From NCBI GenBank assembly GCA_023380955.1, contig JAMCTB010000070.1, forward strand, positions 1 to 29,783: a stretch of DNA of 29,783 bases. Direction: 5' to 3'. A program made the translations under genes and the position numbers. Below are positions 8,845 through 29,602 of this stretch, piece after piece. The DNA comes from Chloroflexota bacterium (GTDB lineage: Bacteria; Chloroflexota; UBA6077). Each line of letters opens with the position of its first letter. Positions within the stretch are counted from its first letter, which is position 1. The notes beneath the pieces are model-generated. The model had not been told where the DNA came from, searched no databases, and worked only from the letters and a program-made list of their open reading frames with translations.

Positions 8845-10068
8845 ATGGGTGGCGTCGACTCAGGAAACGGTTCCATCCGGTCCGAGATTCCCCGGCTGCT
8901 CGACCAGTTCTGCGCGGCCGTGGAGAGCCCTGAGAACAGGTCCCGGCTCAAGCTGTGGGCCGAGCCGTCCTTCCACCTGAAGACGGTCAAGTTCAGGGGC
9001 CAGCCGCTTCCCCTCGTCGAGACAGGAGGCAAGATCCCGATCCAGGCCGACGTGTACAGCGTCGCCTTATGGGCCAGGATCTTTGGCTTCAGCCTCGCCC
9101 AGTACTACACCGACCCCGCTACCTACCTTCACTACTATCTCAAAGCCCGCCTGCGCTGCTTCTCTGATATCCCGGATGACAGCCCCCTCGTGCCTGCTGT
9201 CCCAACATGGATCGGGCTGGGCTTCGAGGCGAGCCTCTTCGGCATCCGCCAGCTCTACGACGAAGTCGCCGAGCCTTGGGTCGACCGCGATTCCGCTCTC
9301 AAAGACTACGGCGAGCTCGGGAAGATCGGCAGACCCGACTTCAGAGCCACCGGCCTCATGCCGCTCGCCCTGCGTTTCTACGACGAGATCCAGCAGATGG
9401 TGGACGGCTACCCCGTCAGGGTACAGTTCCACGATTGGGCACCGGGCCTCCTCACGAGCTTGATCTACCTAAGGGGTTACGACAACCTGATGGTCGACAT
9501 GCTGGAGGAGCCGGAGCTGGTGCATGGCATCGTTCGCCTGGTCACGGACATCCGCAAGCAATGGGAGGTCGACCGCTCCAACTACCTCGGTCGCCCGATT
9601 CCCCAGGCAATGTACTACGACGACGACGTCAACATACCTCAGCTCTCCCCTGGCCTCTTTACGGAATTCCTCCTTCCCTACGAGAAGGAGATCCACGATT
9701 TCCAGGGCGGCGTGTCCTACTGGCACAGCTGCGGCAACATCACTCCGTTCCTGCCTGCGATCCGCGAGATGCCGCGCATCGAGCTTCTGAACGTCAGCGC
9801 CTGGACCGACGTTCGTCGCGCGGCGACGGTGTTCGCGGGCACACCATTGGAAGTCTGCGTCCACGCGGTGGACGACGTGCTTCAGGCCACTCCGGAGCAG
9901 ATGGAGGCCCGAGCGCGCGGGCTCGTGGAGGCATGCTGCGAGATGAAGGTGCCGGCCTGGACCATTCGGGCCGAGGGCATCACCGGCCTGGAGGATCCTC
10001 AGGCGGATCTTCGCCAGGTGAAGGCCTGGGTCGAAACCACCCGGAGAGCAGTGGAGGATAGAGGGTAG
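8845..10068 (+). CDS. URO-D-fold methyltransferase-like protein 1
   Basis: The 407-residue product belongs to the uroporphyrinogen decarboxylase superfamily, which includes corrinoid-linked methyltransferases (MtaA, MtbA, MtvB/VdmB type) as well as true HemE. It has H294-S-C296-GN (in SYWHSCGN), corresponding to the zinc-binding HxC of the methyltransferase branch, but the second, late cysteine motif of MtaA is not apparent. The conserved arginine-rich HemE N-terminus is absent, so heme synthesis is unlikely. The ATG has GGGAGG upstream. The SDR gene follows after 9 bases, so the two are probably co-transcribed. The likely role is methyl transfer to or from a corrinoid protein such as the one at 12647; substrate unknown. 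Confidence 0.75.
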   Translation: MGGVDSGNGSIRSEIPRLLDQFCAAVESPENRSRLKLWAEPSFHLKTVKFRGQPLPLVETGGKIPIQADVYSVALWARIFGFSLAQYYTDPATYLHYYLKARLRCFSDIPDDSPLVPAVPTWIGLGFEASLFGIRQLYDEVAEPWVDRDSALKDYGELGKIGRPDFRATGLMPLALRFYDEIQQMVDGYPVRVQFHDWAPGLLTSLIYLRGYDNLMVDMLEEPELVHGIVRLVTDIRKQWEVDRSNYLGRPIPQAMYYDDDVNIPQLSPGLFTEFLLPYEKEIHDFQGGVSYWHSCGNITPFLPAIREMPRIELLNVSAWTDVRRAATVFAGTPLEVCVHAVDDVLQATPEQMEARARGLVEACCEMKVPAWTIRAEGITGLEDPQADLRQVKAWVETTRRAVEDRG

Positions 10069-10077
10069 GAGGCGTCC

Positions 10078-10863
10078 ATGAGGCTGGAGGGCAAGGCAGC
10101 CATAGTCACGGGGGCCGGGCGGGGCATCGGGCGGGGCGTGGCATTGCGGCTGGCCCGGGAAGGGGCCGACGTCGCGGTGGTCGACATCCAGGGCGACCTG
10201 GCCGACCAGACGGCTGGAGAGATAGAGAAGCTGGGCCGCAGTCCCCTCGCCCTGCCTACCGACGTCAGCGACAGCGCCGCGGTAGCCGAGATGGTGGGCT
10301 CCGTCCACAGCAAGTACGGCCATATCGACATCCTCGTCAACTCCGCCGCCATCGTCGTCACCACCCCGATGGTTGAGACGCGGGAAGAGGATTGGGACCG
10401 GATCATGGCCATCAACCTCAAGGGCACCTTCCTCTGCTGCAAGGCGACCGTGCCCCACATGATGACGCAGCGATCCGGCAAGATCGTGAACTTCTACTCC
10501 TCGGGAGCCAAGTACGGCTCCCCCAACTCCACGGCCTACGCCGCGACGAAGTTCGGCGTTTGGGGCTTCAGCCTATCCCTTGCCGTGGAGTTGGCTCCCC
10601 ACGGCATCAACGTCAACTGCGTCTCGCCGGGGGTAATCGATACCGAGATGATCAGGGACGTGTTCACAGCTAAGAGCCGCCTGGCGGGCAAGGAGGTGGA
10701 CGCGGTGCGGGCGGAGATCACATCCCAGATGCCACTTGGACGGATGGGGACGCCCGAGGACATCGCGGGCGCGGTAGCCTACCTGGTTTCCTCCGATGCC
10801 GATTACGTCACCGGCCATGTGCTGGAGGTCAGCTCGGCGATGAACAGGCTCCGGTTCAAGTGA
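10078..10863 (+). CDS. Short-chain dehydrogenase/reductase (classical SDR)
   Basis: The 261-residue enzyme has the NAD(P)-binding TGAGRGIG (11-18), an acidic residue at the end of the second strand (VVDI, D36), which favours NAD, then NSAA (88-91), N113 in INLKG, and the catalytic S142, Y154 and K158 (YAATK). These are all intact. Family members oxidise secondary alcohols or reduce ketones. It is tightly coupled to the first URO-D gene (9-base gap), so it probably acts on the demethylated or hydroxylated product of the same pathway. The C-terminal TGHVLEVSS replaces the commoner TGQ-INVDGG, a mild divergence. Substrate not assignable. Confidence 0.88.
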   Translation: MRLEGKAAIVTGAGRGIGRGVALRLAREGADVAVVDIQGDLADQTAGEIEKLGRSPLALPTDVSDSAAVAEMVGSVHSKYGHIDILVNSAAIVVTTPMVETREEDWDRIMAINLKGTFLCCKATVPHMMTQRSGKIVNFYSSGAKYGSPNSTAYAATKFGVWGFSLSLAVELAPHGINVNCVSPGVIDTEMIRDVFTAKSRLAGKEVDAVRAEITSQMPLGRMGTPEDIAGAVAYLVSSDADYVTGHVLEVSSAMNRLRFK

Positions 10864-10908
10864 GGCATCAACCGCAGCAACGGCGCGGGCATTTCGGCTG
10901 CGGCGAGT

Positions 10909-10922
10909 TGTTGACAGTTTTC
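10909..10922. promoter_or_regulatory. Possible GntR operator-like site before the cupin gene
   Basis: TGTTGACAGTTTTC matches 12 of 14 bases of the gntR operator left arm plus spacer (8061-8074). The right arm is poorly conserved. It also contains TTGACA, but no -10 element at proper spacing was seen. Confidence 0.35.
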
Positions 10923-10950
10923 AATTCGGAATGAGGGGGCCGGCAACAAC

Positions 10951-11340
10951 ATGGAATTGCTCAGGAGGGAGGATCTCCCGAAAACCCGTCTACCTGGACG
11001 CATCATTCAGAAGACGATTGGCAGGGATGCCTCGGTCGCGAGCCGCAAGATAACCATGGGATTCGCGCAGTACTCCGCCGAAGCTGGCCCAATGACGCCA
11101 CACCAGCACGCCGAAGAGGCGGTCTACGTCATCAGCAGTCATAACGGCTGGGTGCGCTTCGGAGAGGACCAGAGCCGATTGTGCCCCCCCGTGCCGCTCG
11201 CAGCCGGGATGACCCTGCACTTCCCCGAACTCGAATGGCACGTATTCGAGTACGAGGAAGGGGGGCACGTCGACATAGCGTTCTTCTACGGTCAGGTGGA
11301 CAACATTCGTCCTGAGGAGATAGCCGCCAGTCGGCGATAA
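10951..11340 (+). CDS. Single-domain cupin protein
   Basis: The 129-residue protein is a small beta-barrel cupin. The first metal-binding motif is visible as P-H-Q-H-A-E-E around residues 50-56, and a second partner histidine in LEWHVFEYEEG (about 95). Such proteins are metal-dependent isomerases, lyases or dioxygenases, or plain ligand-binding proteins. It lies between the SDR and the second URO-D gene, and an operator-like sequence precedes it, so it probably serves the island's pathway. No further function can be given. A GAGGG lies upstream of the ATG but rather far away, so the start is moderately certain. Confidence 0.75.
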   Translation: MELLRREDLPKTRLPGRIIQKTIGRDASVASRKITMGFAQYSAEAGPMTPHQHAEEAVYVISSHNGWVRFGEDQSRLCPPVPLAAGMTLHFPELEWHVFEYEEGGHVDIAFFYGQVDNIRPEEIAASRR

Positions 11341-11373
11341 TTGGCACTCCACCATGACTTCGTCAGGAAGTAT

Positions 11374-11398
11374 CCGTCGGCACGTCGTGCGCCGACGG
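11374..11398 (+). terminator. Hairpin after the cupin gene
   Basis: CCGTCGGC (11374-11381) pairs perfectly with GCCGACGG (11391-11398) around a 9-base loop. No T-run follows, so factor-independent termination is uncertain. Confidence 0.4.
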
Positions 11399-11459
11399 CG
11401 GCAGCGATGGGCTGCGTGATTCTGGCGCTGGGTTCTGCGGTGGTTTCTTGGCCGATCTT

Positions 11460-11470
11460 CTGTTAACAGT
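11460..11470. promoter_or_regulatory. Possible GntR operator-like site before the second URO-D gene
   Basis: CTGTTAACAG (11460-11469) is a perfect 10-bp palindrome, and TGTTAACAGT matches 9 of 10 bases of the gntR operator left arm. It lies 31 bases before the start codon. Confidence 0.38.
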
Positions 11471-11500
11471 CAACCGCCGAATCAGACGGGGAGGTGCGAG

Positions 11501-12616
11501 ATGACGCGCACAGTCGAAGCGGAGTTCCTGGCCACGGTACGCGACCGGCAGCCCGGTCGAATACTTCCCGTGCTCGTGAGCGCAGGACCTTTCCTTCCCA
11601 TCCTGCGCGGCATCCCTATGCTCAAGTACTACCGCGACCCAGCCCTGCTGCTGGAGTGCAACCTCTGGCTCCAGGACCGCTTCCCGGACGTCAAGCTGAT
11701 CGTTGGACCCTGGGGCGACTTCGGCGTCGCCGCTGTGCCCTCGGCCTTCGGTTGCCCGGTCTTCTGGACCGAGGAGGACCCACCCTACGTCAAGCCTGTG
11801 CTCGGGTCCATCGAGGAGGTGGACAGGCTCCGCCCGGTAGATCCTCACCGGGACGGCCTGATGCCGGACGCCCTCGAGATCTACCGCTACGCCTGGAAGA
11901 ACACCCCCAGGCGCTACGTGGAGGAGTACGGCTGGCTGGACGGCGTCGCTTGGGTCCTGGGGCCGCTGGAGAACGCTGCGCTCATCCGCGGGTACAGCGA
12001 GTTCCTGGCGGATCTGGTCGAGGAACCAGAAAGAGTCCACAAGCTTCTCTCGATCGTGACAGAGACAACCCTGGCGTTTCTGCGTGCCCACGAGGAGGTG
12101 AACGGGCCTATGAAGCTCCTCTTCGTCGCCGAGCACTTCCCCTCGCAAGTAGGGCGCGCTCACTTCGAGGAGTTCTGTCTGCCCTACGTCCGAGCCATCT
12201 TCGCCGAGTTTCCCGGGGCGATAGGGCTGTATCACAACGAGGGGAATGTCTCCCATATCTTGGACCGCATTCCAGAGTTGGGAGCGGAGATCTTCCACTT
12301 CGGGCTCGTCACCCCCCAGGGACGCAGCCGGAGCGGGAGCGAGAGGGAGCGGTTCCGCGAGAGCATAAAGACGGCCGTGGCGGCTCTGGGCGACCGGATG
12401 TGTCTTGCCGGCAACGTCCATCCCGTCGACGTGATGCTGAATGGGACTCCGCAGGAGGTCGCCGAGGAGGCTCGTTTCTGCATGGACGCGGCGGTGGGCA
12501 AGGCGCCCTTCCTTCTCACCGGCGGTGGCGGAATGGCTCCCGGCACGCCGTTGGAAAACGTCGACGCGCTGGTGGCAGCGGCGCGAGAGTATCGCTTGAT
12601 CCCATCTCCTGTCTAG
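11501..12616 (+). CDS. URO-D-fold methyltransferase-like protein 2
   Basis: The 371-residue product has the URO-D/MtaA fold signature, including a late [18 protein letters not shown] segment equivalent to the MtaA G-C-x-x-P-x-x-T-P-x-x-N region. The expected zinc cysteines are replaced: the HxC position reads H245-N-E247-G-N, and the late GC reads GG. It may therefore bind metal differently or use another chemistry, for example as a substrate-specific demethylase rather than a thiol methylase. It lies 30 bases before the corrinoid protein gene, the usual arrangement of a methyltransferase with its cognate corrinoid carrier. The ATG at 11501 is preceded by GGGGAGG. HemE activity is unlikely. 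Confidence 0.75.
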
Positions 12617-12646
12617 CACTGGGGAATCTCTGAAGGGAGGGCACCT

Positions 12647-13318
12647 ATGACCGAAGAAGTGCGAGAGAAGCTGGACGCAGTGCGCGAAGCGGTGATCCAC
12701 GGCAAGACCAAGGTGGTTAAGGATCTCACCTCCGCCTGCCTGGATGCCGGAGCTACGCCTGGGGCGATCCTCAACGAGGCGTTGATCCCAGGCATGGCCA
12801 GGGTCGGAGAACGGTTCGGCTGCGGCGAGATCTTCGTACCGGAGATGCTGATCGCCGCCAGGGCCATGTACGCCAGCCTGGACGTCCTGAAGCCCCTCAT
12901 GAACGCCACGCAGATGGAGCCCCGAGGTACCGTGCTGATCGGCACCGTCAAGGGCGACCTCCACGATATCGGGAAGAACCTGGTCAGGATGATGGTGGAG
13001 GGGGCTGGCTACACGGTGGTGGATCTGGGAGCGGACGTGGCGCCTTCGGCCTTCATAGAGGCCGTGCACAAGCACCGCCCCCAGGTGCTGGGGCTGTCCG
13101 CTTTGCTCACTACGACGATGGCCCAGATGCGCACAACCCTGCGGGCGCTGGACGAGGCAGGGCTCCGGGCCAGGACAAAGGTGATGGTGGGCGGAGCCCC
13201 CGTGACCCAGCGCTATGCGGATGAGATCGGCGCGGACGGCTACGGGGCCGACGCCAACTCCGCCGTACGCATGGTGAACCAGTGGTGTTCGGAGCCGCAG
13301 AAAGTGAGCGCACCATGA
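12647..13318 (+). CDS. Corrinoid (B12-binding) methyl-carrier protein, MtbC/MttC/MtvC type
   Basis: The 223-residue protein has the N-terminal helical cap domain (about 1-88, with ALIPGMARVGERFGCGEIFVPEML) and the C-terminal Rossmann-like B12 domain. The lower-ligand motif D104-x-H106-x-x-G109 (GDLHDIGKNLV) places H106 as the cobalt ligand; LSALLTTTM and VGGAPVT complete the corrinoid pocket. Such proteins accept a methyl group as methyl-Co(III) from a substrate:corrinoid methyltransferase and pass it to a second one. The partner methyltransferase is probably the URO-D gene 30 bases upstream. Its stop overlaps the E1-alpha start (ATGA), indicating translational coupling to the 2-oxoacid dehydrogenase. 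No reductive activator gene lies in the window. Confidence 0.93.
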   Translation: MTEEVREKLDAVREAVIHGKTKVVKDLTSACLDAGATPGAILNEALIPGMARVGERFGCGEIFVPEMLIAARAMYASLDVLKPLMNATQMEPRGTVLIGTVKGDLHDIGKNLVRMMVEGAGYTVVDLGADVAPSAFIEAVHKHRPQVLGLSALLTTTMAQMRTTLRALDEAGLRARTKVMVGGAPVTQRYADEIGADGYGADANSAVRMVNQWCSEPQKVSAP

Positions 13319-20444: not shown

Positions 20445-21626
20445 ATGTTGCCTAAGGAGCGCATGCTGGCGGCGATGGAACACCGAGAGGGCGACCGCGT
20501 CCCGGTGGGTGAGCTGGCCTCCGACTTCGAGATGACCGAGCGAGTGCTGGGTCATCCCACCTACTACCGCTCCAAATGGAGAGAGTACAAGGCGGAGTGG
20601 GAGGGCCGGCGTGAGGACATAGCCGCTTCCTACTCCCGGGACATAGTCGATCTCGCCCGCACCCTGGAGTGGGACTTCCTGGTGGTGCCGCTTGTGCCGG
20701 CCCGACGACACGTCTACCCGAAGCCGGAGATGCTGGGCGAGTACCGCTGGCGCGACGCATCCGGAAAGGTGTGGCAGTACTCGCCAGATTCGGGTGGCCA
20801 CGCCATGCTGATCGAGGCTCCGCCCATGGACGTCGCGGACATCGTCTTGCCTAAGGACTTTCAGGTCGACGAATCGCGCCTCGAGGCGATCGCCGCTGCC
20901 GTGAGAGCGCTAGGGGATACCCACTTCGTGGTGGGGAGGCTGCCTGAATGCACCTTCCCCTGGGACCTGACGATCGGGATGGAGGACTTCCTCATGAGGA
21001 TGATCACCCAGCGGGAGTTCGTACAGAGGGCTACCGAGGCAGCCGTGCGCCAGGGCGAAGCCTGGGCGGCGGCGATGTGCGACCTCGGCGTCGACGCCGT
21101 GATAGAGTGTACCGATTACTGCGACAACTTCGGCCCTATGATGGGTCCGAAGCTCTTCCGTGAATTCATTCTGCCGGGCATCAGGAGGCTGGGCAAGGTC
21201 GCCCACTCGAAGGGCAAGTACTTCCTGAAGCACACCGACGGCAACACCTGGGCCATCTTGGACGACATGATCGCGGCCGGCATCGACGGCTGGCAAGGTA
21301 TACAGCCCAGCATCGGCATGGATCTCAAGGCGCTCAAGGAGAAGTACTGCGGCAAGCTCTGCCTCTTCGGCGGGGTAAACAACGAGACGCTGATCGCCGG
21401 TACGCCCGCGGAGGTGATGGAGGAGGTGGAGTACGCCTTCCGCTACGCGGCCCCTGGAGGTGGCTACGTGCTCGCCTCCGGCAACACACTCCAGATCGGC
21501 ACGAAGTACGAGAACTACGTGGCAATGCGAAAGGCGGCCAGGCAGTTCGGAACCTACCCTATCGTCCTGCCTGAGGTCAACTGCCCTGGCCGACCCCTGA
21601 GTCCGGTTCGCCCGACAGACAGCTAG
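20445..21626 (+). CDS. URO-D-fold methyltransferase-like protein 3
   Basis: The 393-residue protein is a third URO-D superfamily member of the island, only distantly similar to the other two. It shows a typical N-terminal ERMLAAMEHREGDRVPVGE, the central DAVIECTDYCDNFGPMMGPKLFREFI and LFGGVNNETLIAGTPAEVMEEVE. The zinc-ligand position reads H263-T-D265-GN (KHTDGN), with Asp in place of Cys, and the late GC region reads ASGNTLQIGT. This variant is likely a substrate-specific methyltransferase or lyase rather than HemE or a classic MtaA. The ATG has AAGGAG 8 bases upstream. It follows the E2 gene by 49 bases and is probably the last gene of the operon. Confidence 0.72.
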   Translation: MLPKERMLAAMEHREGDRVPVGELASDFEMTERVLGHPTYYRSKWREYKAEWEGRREDIAASYSRDIVDLARTLEWDFLVVPLVPARRHVYPKPEMLGEYRWRDASGKVWQYSPDSGGHAMLIEAPPMDVADIVLPKDFQVDESRLEAIAAAVRALGDTHFVVGRLPECTFPWDLTIGMEDFLMRMITQREFVQRATEAAVRQGEAWAAAMCDLGVDAVIECTDYCDNFGPMMGPKLFREFILPGIRRLGKVAHSKGKYFLKHTDGNTWAILDDMIAAGIDGWQGIQPSIGMDLKALKEKYCGKLCLFGGVNNETLIAGTPAEVMEEVEYAFRYAAPGGGYVLASGNTLQIGTKYENYVAMRKAARQFGTYPIVLPEVNCPGRPLSPVRPTDS

Positions 21627-27473: not shown

Positions 27474-27508
27474 GGTTGCGCAACCAACATCTTCAGGAGG
27501 TGGCGCCG

Positions 27509-27766
27509 GTGGCAGAGCCGAAGCAGCTGTCCATTTCAATCGAGTACTGCAACATCTGAAACTACCTCCCCCAGGCCGTCGGCCTGGCGGAATCGGTGCT
27601 CGATCAACTGGGAAACGACGTGAAGGAGCTTACCCTGATCCCCTCACGGGGAGGGGTCTTCGAGGTAACCGTCGACCGAGCGCTCGTCTTCTCCAAGAAG
27701 AAGGAGGGTCGCCACCCCACCATCGACGAGATCACCAAGGTCCTGCGCCGGAAGCTGACCGTCTGA
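27509..27766 (+). CDS. SelW-like (Rdx family) selenoprotein with in-frame UGA
   Basis: A GTG at 27509 with AGGAGG 8 bases upstream opens an 85-codon frame that reads through one TGA (27557-27559) to a TGA stop at 27764-27766. If the internal TGA is selenocysteine the protein starts MAEPKQLSISIEYCNIUNYL, with a thioredoxin-like C14-x-x-U17 motif as in selenoprotein W and its Cys homologues. The rest fits the Rdx family: LTLIPSRGGVFEVTVDRALVFSKKKEGRHP and a final helix. The family consists of small thiol/selenol redox proteins of poorly known partners. A hairpin 18 bases after the TGA fits a bacterial SECIS. Alternatives are a recent Cys-to-stop mutation or a sequence error. Confidence 0.78.
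27560..27591 (+). promoter_or_regulatory. Candidate bacterial SECIS element
   Basis: Just after the in-frame TGA, CCAGGCC (27571-27577) and GGCCTGG (27581-27587) form a 7-bp stem with a GTC loop. A C-C mismatch and three more pairs (27567-27569 with 27589-27591) extend it. The loop begins 18 bases after the TGA and its first base is G, within the published bacterial SECIS pattern. Confidence 0.7.
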
Positions 27767-27800: not shown

Positions 27801-28667
27801 ATGGTTGGAGGCTACGCCGGCAAGATTCTCGACGTGGATCTGACCACGGGGAGGATGCGTGAGGAGAGGCCAGGGGAAGGGCTGCTGAGAGGCTTCCTGG
27901 GTGGATACGGGGTGGGGGCCCGCCTGCTCTACGATCGCATGGCCGCCGGGATCGATCCCCTCGGTCCCCTCAACCTGCTGGGTTTCTTCACCGGCCCCCT
28001 GACCGGCACCCCGGCCATCGAGGGGAATCGCTTCACCGTGGTGTGCAAGTCGCCCCTCACCCTCACCTGGGGGGACGCCAACTGCGGCGGCACCTTCGGC
28101 CCCCACATGAAGTTCGCCGGCTTCGACGGCATCCTCTTCTCCGGCGTCTCGGAGCGGCCGGTCTACCTCTTCGTCGAGGAAGGAAGGGCCGAGCTGCGGG
28201 ACGCCTTCGACCTGTGGGGCAGGGACACCAACGAGACCGAGGATCTGTTGAAGGCTCGCCACGGCAAGGAGGCCCAGGTAGCCGGCATCGGCCCCTCGGG
28301 GGAGAAGCTGGTCCTCATCGCCGGCATCGTCAACGACTACGGCAGGCTGGCGGCCCGCTCGGGCGTCGGCGCCGTGATGGGCTCCAAACGGCTGAAGGCC
28401 GTGGTGGTGAAGGGTAGCCTGGCGGTCCCCCTGGCCAATCCCGACCGGGTCAAGGATCTGAAGGCCTCCTACCTGAAGCAGCACGGAGGGGGCTACGACT
28501 TCTTCGTGAAGACCGGCAACGTCCGGGGGGTGACCGTGGATCTGGCCACCCAGGTGAGGGAGTTCTGCCGGGCGATGGGGTGGGACCCCGAGACTGCGAT
28601 GCCCGACCCGCAGCGGCTGGAGGAGCTGGGGCTGGGGGACGTGGCCCGGGACCTGGGGTTGGCCTGA
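27801..28667 (+). CDS. Aldehyde:ferredoxin oxidoreductase (AOR) family protein lacking the central cluster-binding region
   Basis: The 288-residue product begins as a tungstopterin-type AOR: GGYAGKILDVDLTTG (3-17), LLRGFLGGYGVGARLLYD, TGPLTGTPAIEGNRF, WGDANCGGTFGPHMKFAGFDGILFSG (90-115) and RSGVGAVMGSKRLKAV (186-201). After about residue 241 it jumps to what is normally the extreme C-terminus: REFCRAMGWDPETAMPDPQRLEELGLGDVA. Full AORs have about 600 residues; the middle 300, with the [4Fe-4S] cysteines, is missing in frame. It could be a pseudogene, a pterin-binding fragment or an assembly gap. The ATG has AGGAGG only 4 bases upstream. It starts 34 bases after the SelW-like gene, probably in one transcript. 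Confidence 0.8.
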   Translation: MVGGYAGKILDVDLTTGRMREERPGEGLLRGFLGGYGVGARLLYDRMAAGIDPLGPLNLLGFFTGPLTGTPAIEGNRFTVVCKSPLTLTWGDANCGGTFGPHMKFAGFDGILFSGVSERPVYLFVEEGRAELRDAFDLWGRDTNETEDLLKARHGKEAQVAGIGPSGEKLVLIAGIVNDYGRLAARSGVGAVMGSKRLKAVVVKGSLAVPLANPDRVKDLKASYLKQHGGGYDFFVKTGNVRGVTVDLATQVREFCRAMGWDPETAMPDPQRLEELGLGDVARDLGLA

Positions 28668-28705: not shown

Positions 28706-29602
28706 CTACTGGACTGTCTCCATCATCCGGCAGAAGGCGCAGACGACCTCGGTGGTGGGTTGGCCGCACCGCTCGCAGTCTCGCAGGTCGACGGCACCCT
28801 CCACCTCCCGAAAGAGGGCCCGACCGGTGTCCAGGTAGCCGAAGAGGAAGCTGTGCTTGGCGCCGGGCGACTGCTCCTCCAACCGGTTCAGGATCTCCTT
28901 GTACAGGAGAGAGCGGGCACCCTCGGCCAGGGGGCACTCCTCCACCACGTAGTCGATCCCCCGCAGGAGGGCGTAGGCCGCCGTCTCCCTCTCGGTGAGG
29001 CGGAAGAGGGGCTTCACCTTCTTGACCAGGTGGGGATGGGTGCTCTCCAACACCGGCGACTGGCGGGCCAGGTAGCCTGTCTTCCAATGGAGCAGGTTGC
29101 CCAGGAGGGAGGCGGCCTCGTCGTCCAGGTTGTGGCCCGTGGCCACCACGTCGAAGCCCCCCTCGCGGGCCACGGCGTTGAAGTAGTGGCGCTTGCTGAG
29201 CCCGCAGGCGGAGCAGGGTTTGCGCCGCACCCTCCTGTAGAGCTGGTCTATGCCCACACCGAGCTGCTGCCGGTAATCGACGACGATCAACTCCAACCCG
29301 CGCCCCTCGGCGAAGGCCTCCACCTTCCGCCGGGAAAGGGAGGAGTACCCCTCGATCCCCAGCTCCAGGTGGAGGCCGGCGGTCTGGAACCCCAGCCGCT
29401 GAAGCACGTCCCAGAGGGCGAGGCTGTCCTTTCCTCCCGAGACGGCTACCAGCACCCGGTCCCCCGGGGTGAACATCTTCTCCCTGTGGAGGGCTCGGGT
29501 GACCTGCTCCTCGAAGTGGTGAAGGAAGCATTGATCGCAGTAGGCCGCGTTGTGGCGGCGCAGCTCGATCCACGCCTTGCTGCCGCATCGGGTGCAACGC
29601 AC
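28706..29602 (-). CDS. tRNA 2-thiolation enzyme, TtuA/Ncs6 (CTU1) family
   Basis: The 298-residue enzyme is an ATP-pyrophosphatase that adenylates a tRNA uridine and inserts sulfur, as TtuA does for 2-thioribothymidine at position 54. Seen: an N-terminal zinc finger (C3, C6, C22, C25), the PP-loop VSGGKDS (54-60), C130-x-x-C133 and C223, which match in position the three cysteines holding the [4Fe-4S] cluster of Thermus TtuA, and a C-terminal zinc finger (DCERCGQPT to CAFC). All key residues are present. The GTG start at 29602 uses a GGGAGG that lies in the end of the upstream gene, only 3 bases separating the two genes. The upstream product is the likely sulfur donor. Confidence 0.92.
   Translation of the reverse strand: MRCTRCGSKAWIELRRHNAAYCDQCFLHHFEEQVTRALHREKMFTPGDRVLVAVSGGKDSLALWDVLQRLGFQTAGLHLELGIEGYSSLSRRKVEAFAEGRGLELIVVDYRQQLGVGIDQLYRRVRRKPCSACGLSKRHYFNAVAREGGFDVVATGHNLDDEAASLLGNLLHWKTGYLARQSPVLESTHPHLVKKVKPLFRLTERETAAYALLRGIDYVVEECPLAEGARSLLYKEILNRLEEQSPGAKHSFLFGYLDTGRALFREVEGAVDLRDCERCGQPTTEVVCAFCRMMETVQ

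What the first reader, a model, noticed from the sequence alone, without database searches (positions are those of the whole stretch)
27509..27766. Hidden selenoprotein W-like gene with Cys-x-x-Sec and a SECIS-like hairpin
A standard gene caller would miss this 85-codon gene because of the in-frame TGA at 27557. Seen directly: good ribosome site, uninterrupted family-like sequence on both sides of the TGA, the TGA exactly where Rdx/SelW proteins carry the second Cys or Sec of C-x-x-C/U, and an 18-base distance to a 7-bp hairpin with G first in its loop. Known: bacterial SECIS elements follow the UGA at 16-37 bases with a G in the first two loop bases. Inference: this organism reads UGA as selenocysteine here. 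To my knowledge SelW-like selenoproteins are not widely described in Chloroflexota.
Basis: partly seen in the sequence, partly recalled or inferred. Interest (0 to 1): 0.87.

Follow-up and report, generated by a model that had tools for sequence, protein, structure and literature searches.

The report
Bacterial selenoprotein W with conserved SECIS
A small redox-protein gene of an uncultured, probably Chloroflexota bacterium very likely reads an internal UGA stop codon as selenocysteine; the protein family is already known, and a hairpin conserved in about a hundred related genes supports the readthrough.

Summary
Window 27509-27766 is an 85-codon frame with a good ribosome site and one in-frame TGA at 27557; read through, it is an Rdx/SelW protein with Cys-x-x-Sec. 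In 80 homologous loci the same codon is TGA in 79 and Cys (TGT) in one. The window fits that model (41.9 bits, E 1.3e-8); the two hairpins exclude each other. In Chloroflexota, 91 of 93 genomes with a TGA-form gene carry selB, against 32 of 46 with stop-free forms only. No genome of the window's organism was available; its nearest relative found (G130) has selA, selB and tRNA-Sec but no SelW. Bacterial SelW-like selenoproteins have been in print since 2005 at the latest, so this is a new member of a known kind, common in Chloroflexota though I found no paper saying so. By-products: a UxxU SelW clade in Verrucomicrobiales, and a neighbouring aldehyde ferredoxin oxidoreductase gene lacking its C-terminal domain.

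The parts
27495..27500 (+). Shine-Dalgarno AGGAGG, 8 bases before the GTG start
   Evidence: sequence
27509..27766 (+). selW-like gene, 85 codons plus stop; GTG start, Sec at codon 17, TGA stop
   Evidence: Rdx PF10262 3.1e-21, TIGR02174, NF041051
27548..27550 (+). TGC, Cys14 of the C-x-x-U motif
27557..27559 (+). in-frame TGA read as selenocysteine
   Evidence: TGA in 79 of 80 homologous loci; model R1 match starts here
27576..27590 (+). conserved SECIS hairpin: stem CCGUC/GGCGG (27576-27580 with 27586-27590), loop GGCCU 27581-27585 with the near-invariant G at 27582
   Evidence: covariation in 100 relatives; window match 41.9 bits, E 1.3e-8
27801..28667 (+). next gene, 34 bases after the selW stop: aldehyde ferredoxin oxidoreductase N-domain with a short tail, no PF01314; possibly co-transcribed (context)
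   Evidence: AFOR_N 3.4e-73
28706..29602 (-). TtuA-like tRNA thiolation protein, convergent (context only)

Best explanation
The gene encodes a SelW-like (Rdx family, thioredoxin-like) selenoprotein with a Cys14-x-x-Sec17 redox pair. Translation starts at GTG 27509. At UGA 27557, SelB carrying Sec-tRNA binds the hairpin at 27576-27590 just downstream and inserts selenocysteine; translation ends at the second UGA, 27764, where the SECIS model finds nothing. Shown: the frame, the family, the conserved TGA, the covarying hairpin, the association with selB. Inferred: that this organism has the Sec machinery, that Sec is really inserted, which hairpin is used, and the thiol/selenol redox role. My odds for Sec insertion by either hairpin are 0.95; the figure below is for the whole statement, family hairpin included.
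For: Family match across the TGA. TGA at codon 17 in 79 of 80 loci, Cys in 1; among all 112 loci with a match, 107 TGA, 4 TGC, 1 TGT (two of the 107, L081 and L084, are second copies of L017 and L020). On 100 distinct TGA loci without the window, the stem at alignment columns 20-24/30-34 is paired in 91.0% of cells (shuffled 76.2, slid copies at most 58.2), with 71 two-sided changes (shuffled 17.5) and covariation 0.472 (shuffled 0.180, slid at most 0.128); 0 of 500 shuffles reach these three values. G in the first two loop bases in 101 of 101 including the window; all 5 pairs in 73 of 101, 4 or more in 89. A model built without the window finds it at 27557-27604 with 41.9 bits, E 1.3e-8, next best 13.0 bits. 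Loci not used for the model: 13 of 13 TGA loci match at E 5.9e-5 or better; 0 of 21 stop-free loci below E 0.1. Of 41 genomes checked (from the 80 loci; 40 TGA, 1 Cys): selB over cut-off in 31, tRNA-Sec over cut-off in 33; 37 of the 40 TGA genomes have one or both, the Cys genome neither. Chloroflexota: selB in 91 of 93 TGA-form genomes, 32 of 46 stop-free-only genomes, Fisher p 3e-6. Nearest relative found, G130 (panB 83%, AAA protein 81% identical), has selB, tRNA-Sec and selA. 9 of 21 other frames taken as genes end in TGA.
Against: No genome for the window, so selA/B/C/D were not seen in the organism itself. The nearest relative with the machinery, G130, has no SelW. In the window's own RNA the conserved hairpin is 6-11 kcal/mol less stable than the competing one and nearly unpopulated unless about 14 bases after the UGA are hidden. 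The competing stem's diagonal is the second best of all in pairing excess (0.44 against 0.65). One of the five measures, the number of pairs with a two-sided change (4), is reached by 351 of 500 shuffles. U at the third loop base, usual in the family (70 of 101), is C here. The window is a long branch in the tree. 3 of 40 TGA genomes showed neither selB nor tRNA-Sec over cut-off, and 2 of 93 in Chloroflexota no selB.
Confidence: 0.77

Rival explanations
1. Sec is inserted here, but through the 7-bp hairpin seen by the first reader rather than the family hairpin.
For: It is far more stable in the window, has G first in the loop at an allowed distance; a weaker covariation signal exists at its columns (0.213 against 0.158 shuffled and at most 0.127 slid; second-best diagonal).
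Against: Its pairs form in 67.9% of cells across relatives against 91.0% for the family stem; the window fits the family model over its full length.
Confidence: 0.18
2. The TGA is a real stop (nonsense mutation or sequencing error) in a Cys-type Rdx gene, or the downstream 56-aa frame is the gene.
For: Database predictions start after the TGA. No machinery seen in the organism itself.
Against: 79 of 80 loci from other genomes have TGA there; upstream codons including the redox Cys are conserved; covarying stem; the ribosome site is at the upstream GTG.
Confidence: 0.03
3. UGA is read as another amino acid (a tryptophan or glycine code, or near-cognate readthrough).
For: Two database relatives show Trp at this site and one Arg (P0006, P0007, P0009). 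I could not see their DNA; a code-4 translation would explain Trp but not Arg.
Against: The gene's own terminator and 9 of 21 other frames taken as genes use TGA as stop; L054 and the PDB relative 2fa8 have Cys at this column; the SECIS is conserved.
Confidence: 0.02

Closest known systems
Bacterial SelW-like (SELENOW-like) selenoproteins, PF10262, CxxU (PMC1794560, PMC1088965, PMC13188914: passages read)
   Same: Rdx domain, CxxU with Sec at the second position, bacterial SECIS just downstream. The 2026 review lists CxxU with one Sec; the 2006 survey lists 10 bacterial members.
   Different: Host: members named in the passages I read are Deltaproteobacteria, Clostridia and Symbiobacterium; this one is probably Chloroflexota. 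A second, stronger hairpin overlaps the SECIS.
Cys-type Rdx proteins with solved structures (2fa8, 3dex, 2oka, 2ojl, 2obk, 2p0g)
   Same: Same family over residues 8 to about 80; Cys at the Sec column in 2fa8, the one alignment shown.
   Different: Cys instead of Sec in 2fa8. In the tree four of the five Cys rows group together; the fifth (L117) sits on a long branch beside a TGA row.
Mammalian selenoprotein W (recalled; not tested here)
   Same: CxxU redox motif in an Rdx fold.
   Different: The eukaryotic SECIS lies in the 3' untranslated region (PMC1088965 passage); here it is inside the coding region.
E. coli fdhF SECIS (recalled, no call)
   Same: Apical loop with the key G; many family members here have a GGUCU-type loop.
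   Different: Not compared by any search; the window loop is GGCCU.

Membership tests
Bacterial SelW-like selenoprotein | Rdx domain over the curated cut-off | tested here: met
   PF10262 75.8 bits against 22.6; TIGR02174 60.7 against 34.2; NF041051 90.1 against 88
Bacterial SelW-like selenoprotein | C-x-x-U with in-frame UGA at the second redox position | tested here: met
   TGC 27548, TGA 27557; TGA in 79 of 80 loci, Cys in 1
Bacterial SelW-like selenoprotein | bacterial SECIS: hairpin downstream of the UGA with G in the first two loop bases | tested here: met
   21 bases lie between the UGA and the loop
Bacterial SelW-like selenoprotein | that conserved hairpin is the favoured fold of this RNA on its own (not a defining feature in print as far as I know, but a check) | tested here: inconclusive
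   not favoured: a competing hairpin, itself of SECIS shape, is 6-11 kcal/mol more stable; the tested family pair also has probability under 0.05 in 26 of 101 sequences, the window included, with 10 bases hidden
Bacterial SelW-like selenoprotein | selA, selB, selC, selD in the same genome | not testable with these tools
   no genome held; relative G130 has selA, selB, tRNA-Sec; selD not searched
Bacterial SelW-like selenoprotein | selenocysteine in the purified protein | not testable with these tools
   needs experiment

The most novel reading that the evidence does not exclude
The window's mRNA holds two mutually exclusive hairpins, a strong one that hides the conserved SECIS and the conserved SECIS itself. 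The advancing ribosome or SelB would have to melt the first before Sec can be inserted, so the pair could act as a switch between termination and Sec insertion.
Probability: 0.08. Interest if true: 0.6.

Novelty: new member of a known kind. Interest (0 to 1): 0.36.

Why it matters
It gives a well-supported case of a selenoprotein gene that standard gene calling halves, and a usable tool: a structure model from 100 relatives that picked out 13 of 13 TGA genes not used to build it and none of 21 stop-free relatives below E 0.1 (the model contains the TGA and coding sequence as well as the stem). It also shows that SelW is a common selenoprotein in Chloroflexota, where a 2006 survey counted 3 selenoproteins in all (PMC1794560, passage), and suggests that the RNA hairpin constrains the protein, since two of the covarying pairs lie at first and second codon positions (inference).

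Tried and rejected
Rfam at gathering cut-offs: nothing in the window. tRNA search of the window: none. Viral contigs: no relative. Placing the organism by name: not possible; the nearest genome, G130, is unnamed, and 'Chloroflexota' rests on G006's record title (L006), on the tool's phylum and class groups and on the tree neighbours of SelW, a set of 19 rows that also holds Actinomycetota, Bacillota and one Acidobacteriota. A functional link between SelW and the neighbouring oxidoreductase: among loci fetched up, a match to that protein occurs in one other, L134 of G242 (many of these loci hold only 1.5 kb of flank); there an oxidoreductase gene is divergent from SelW with a MoaD-like frame, judged by eye, between them. 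Too little to claim. Selenophosphate synthetase (selD) was not searched. No structure was predicted.

Full report
What is there. Window 27509-27766 (+) has AGGAGG, 8 bases, GTG, a TGA as codon 17, and a TGA stop after codon 85. Read through the first TGA it is an 85-residue Rdx/SelW protein: PF10262 at 3.1e-21 over residues 9-80, TIGR02174 and NF041051 over their cut-offs. Seven PDB sequences match (2fa8, 3dex, 2oka, 2ojl, 2obk, 2p0g and, weakly, 2ljk, labelled C17orf37); the best, 2fa8, has Cys at the TGA column.

Is the TGA meant? A scan of genome contigs (one genome for each of 84,980 species, by the tool's description) gave 205 pattern matches, 90 confirmed relatives, of which the best 80 were kept. 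In these 80, codon 17 is TGA in 79 and TGT in one, L054 (in L010 the codon was read by extrapolation). The scan did not favour TGA: the query had Cys there, and the one pattern of six that spans the site asked for Cys. Among the 112 loci with a match, which add profile hits from Chloroflexota, codon 17 is TGA in 107, TGC in 4, TGT in 1; L081 and L084 repeat L017 and L020. In the protein database 14 of 18 hits, the window's own 56-aa fragment included, are 53-62 aa and begin after the site; of the four longer ones, P0006 and P0007 have Trp and P0009 has Arg there, and P0019 comes in from another frame; I could not see their DNA.

The SECIS. Lining up the bases after the TGA without gaps shows something better. 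Pair 19-29 has the largest excess of all, and 19-29, 20-28 and 18-30 have the highest mutual information (0.63, 0.48, 0.41) among the 30 pairs best in excess. On the 100 distinct TGA loci without the window: 91.0% of cells paired (shuffled 76.2; slid copies 24 to 58), 71 cells changed on both sides (shuffled 17.5), 15 further pair types (shuffled 10.1), covariation 0.472 (shuffled 0.180; slid at most 0.128), each reached by 0 of 500 shuffles. The fifth measure, 4 pairs with a two-sided change, is reached by 351 of 500. All 101 have G in the first two loop bases, 98 at the second; 73 form all five pairs, 89 four or more. A covariance model from the 100 finds the window at 27557-27604 with 41.9 bits, E 1.3e-8; the next match has 13.0 bits. 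On 34 loci not used for the model it matched 13 of 13 TGA loci (E 5.9e-5 or better; eight are Verrucomicrobiales, six of them from the clade of L072 and L076, which are in the model) and none of 21 stop-free loci below E 0.1 (three weak matches, E 0.11, 0.11 and 0.64). The model includes the TGA and coding sequence, so part of its score is sequence; the covariation test does not depend on that.

Two hairpins. With 10 bases hidden, 26 of 101 sequences, the window among them, have a probability under 0.05 for the tested family pair; the mean over all 101 is 0.66. I take the conserved stem as the SECIS and leave open whether the other is used, is a decoy, or is an accident of the codons. The odds are split accordingly: Sec insertion by either hairpin 0.95, by the family hairpin 0.77.

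The machinery. For 41 genomes holding these loci (of 80; L001-L031 and ten others; 40 TGA, 1 Cys), selB is over cut-off in 31 (over cut-off in 2 of 14 controls, named as E. coli and M. jannaschii) and tRNA-Sec in 33 (that cut-off also passes 5 of 14 controls, not named, but the best match of each of the 33 scores 56 bits or more). 37 of 40 TGA genomes have one or both; G009, G013, G041 and the Cys genome G037 have neither. In 400 genomes of the phylum of G006 (L006, titled uncultured Chloroflexota bacterium), TIGR02174 matches 187. From the 150 matches that the capped output listed, 93 genomes have a match with a TGA inside and 46 only stop-free ones. selB at E 1e-65 or better is found in 91 of 93 and 32 of 46 (Fisher p 3e-6), and in 309 of 400 overall, 306 of them over the curated cut-off. 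I did not check that every TGA in that list lies at codon 17; in the TGA loci that read, it did. The window has no genome of its own. The nearest relative by panB (83%; next 61%) and by the AAA protein (81%, with two of the same neighbours, 58% and 45% identical) is G130. It has selB, selA and tRNA-Sec at 72 bits, but no SelW match, where 18 of 29 genomes of its class have one.

Not a changed code. The selW gene itself ends in TGA, as do 9 of 21 other frames that I took as genes; the other 12 end in TAG.

How it works. Best reading: SelB with Sec-tRNA is recruited by the hairpin just downstream and inserts selenocysteine at codon 17; the product is a small thioredoxin-like protein with a Cys-Sec redox pair. 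The redox role is inferred from the family; the Sargasso Sea paper gives it as a suggestion (PMC1088965, passages read).

Known or new. Bacterial SelW-like selenoproteins are well documented: 48 genes, the most abundant family, in Sargasso Sea data (PMC1088965, passages), 10 in the 2006 survey (PMC1794560, passages), among the most widespread in ocean data (PMC2398784, passages), and listed as CxxU with one Sec in a 2026 review (PMC13188914, passages). The 2006 survey counts 3 selenoproteins of 3 families in Chloroflexi; the passages I saw do not name them. Searches for SelW-like with Chloroflexi and Chloroflexota with selenocysteine and selenoprotein listed no report of SelW there; the terms SelW and Chloroflex do not occur in PMC5029168 or PMC12013277, and Chloroflex not in PMC13188914 (term searches). 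Subscription journals are mostly not held. So: a new member of a known kind, with a good demonstration of its SECIS.

By-products. In Verrucomicrobiales, a clade of SelW genes has TGA at both redox codons (UxxU): of 32 matches in 29 of 189 genomes of the order, 12 (in 11 genomes) show two in-frame TGAs, 18 one, 2 none. All 8 of the 12 that I read (L166-L168, L170-L174) have them at the two motif positions (L168 and L166 are the genes of L072 and L076), and the family model matches after the second in the six of these not used to build it. G040 has selB and tRNA-Sec, G041 neither over cut-off. UxxU SelW is in print for amphioxus and Ostreococcus (PMC7539508, passage); I found no bacterial report (of whose 124 papers 20 were listed, and 71).

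Noticed in passing
L072:10046, L076:7006, L166-L168, L170-L174: Verrucomicrobiales SelW genes with TGA at both redox codons (UxxU), followed by the same SECIS; 12 matches in 11 of 189 genomes of the order have two in-frame TGAs, 8 read. In print I found UxxU SelW only for eukaryotes (PMC7539508).
   Followed up: partly
window 27801-28667: Aldehyde ferredoxin oxidoreductase gene of 288 aa: N-domain only, then a tail that looks by eye like the extreme C-terminus of a full-length enzyme; roughly 320 residues shorter than the G242 gene. P0020 (288 aa, 99% identical with 4 substitutions, a 5540-base contig) has the same shape, which speaks against a single assembly error.
   Followed up: partly
L017, L020, L040, L065: In 4 of 80 loci, all Bacillales, a selB gene lies on the same fetched stretch as SelW, directly beside it in L017 and L020. 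L081 and L084 are the same two places seen from selB.
   Followed up: no
L155:6316-8869: In G242 a TGA-form SelW is divergent from an aldehyde ferredoxin oxidoreductase gene, with a MoaD-like frame between them (judged by eye).
   Followed up: partly
window 8845-13318 and 20445-21626: Three URO-D-type proteins and a B12-binding protein, suggesting corrinoid-dependent methyl transfer.
   Followed up: no
P0006, P0007, P0009: Database relatives with Trp or Arg at the Sec position; whether this is a code-4 translation, a sequencing difference or a real replacement could not be checked.
   Followed up: no
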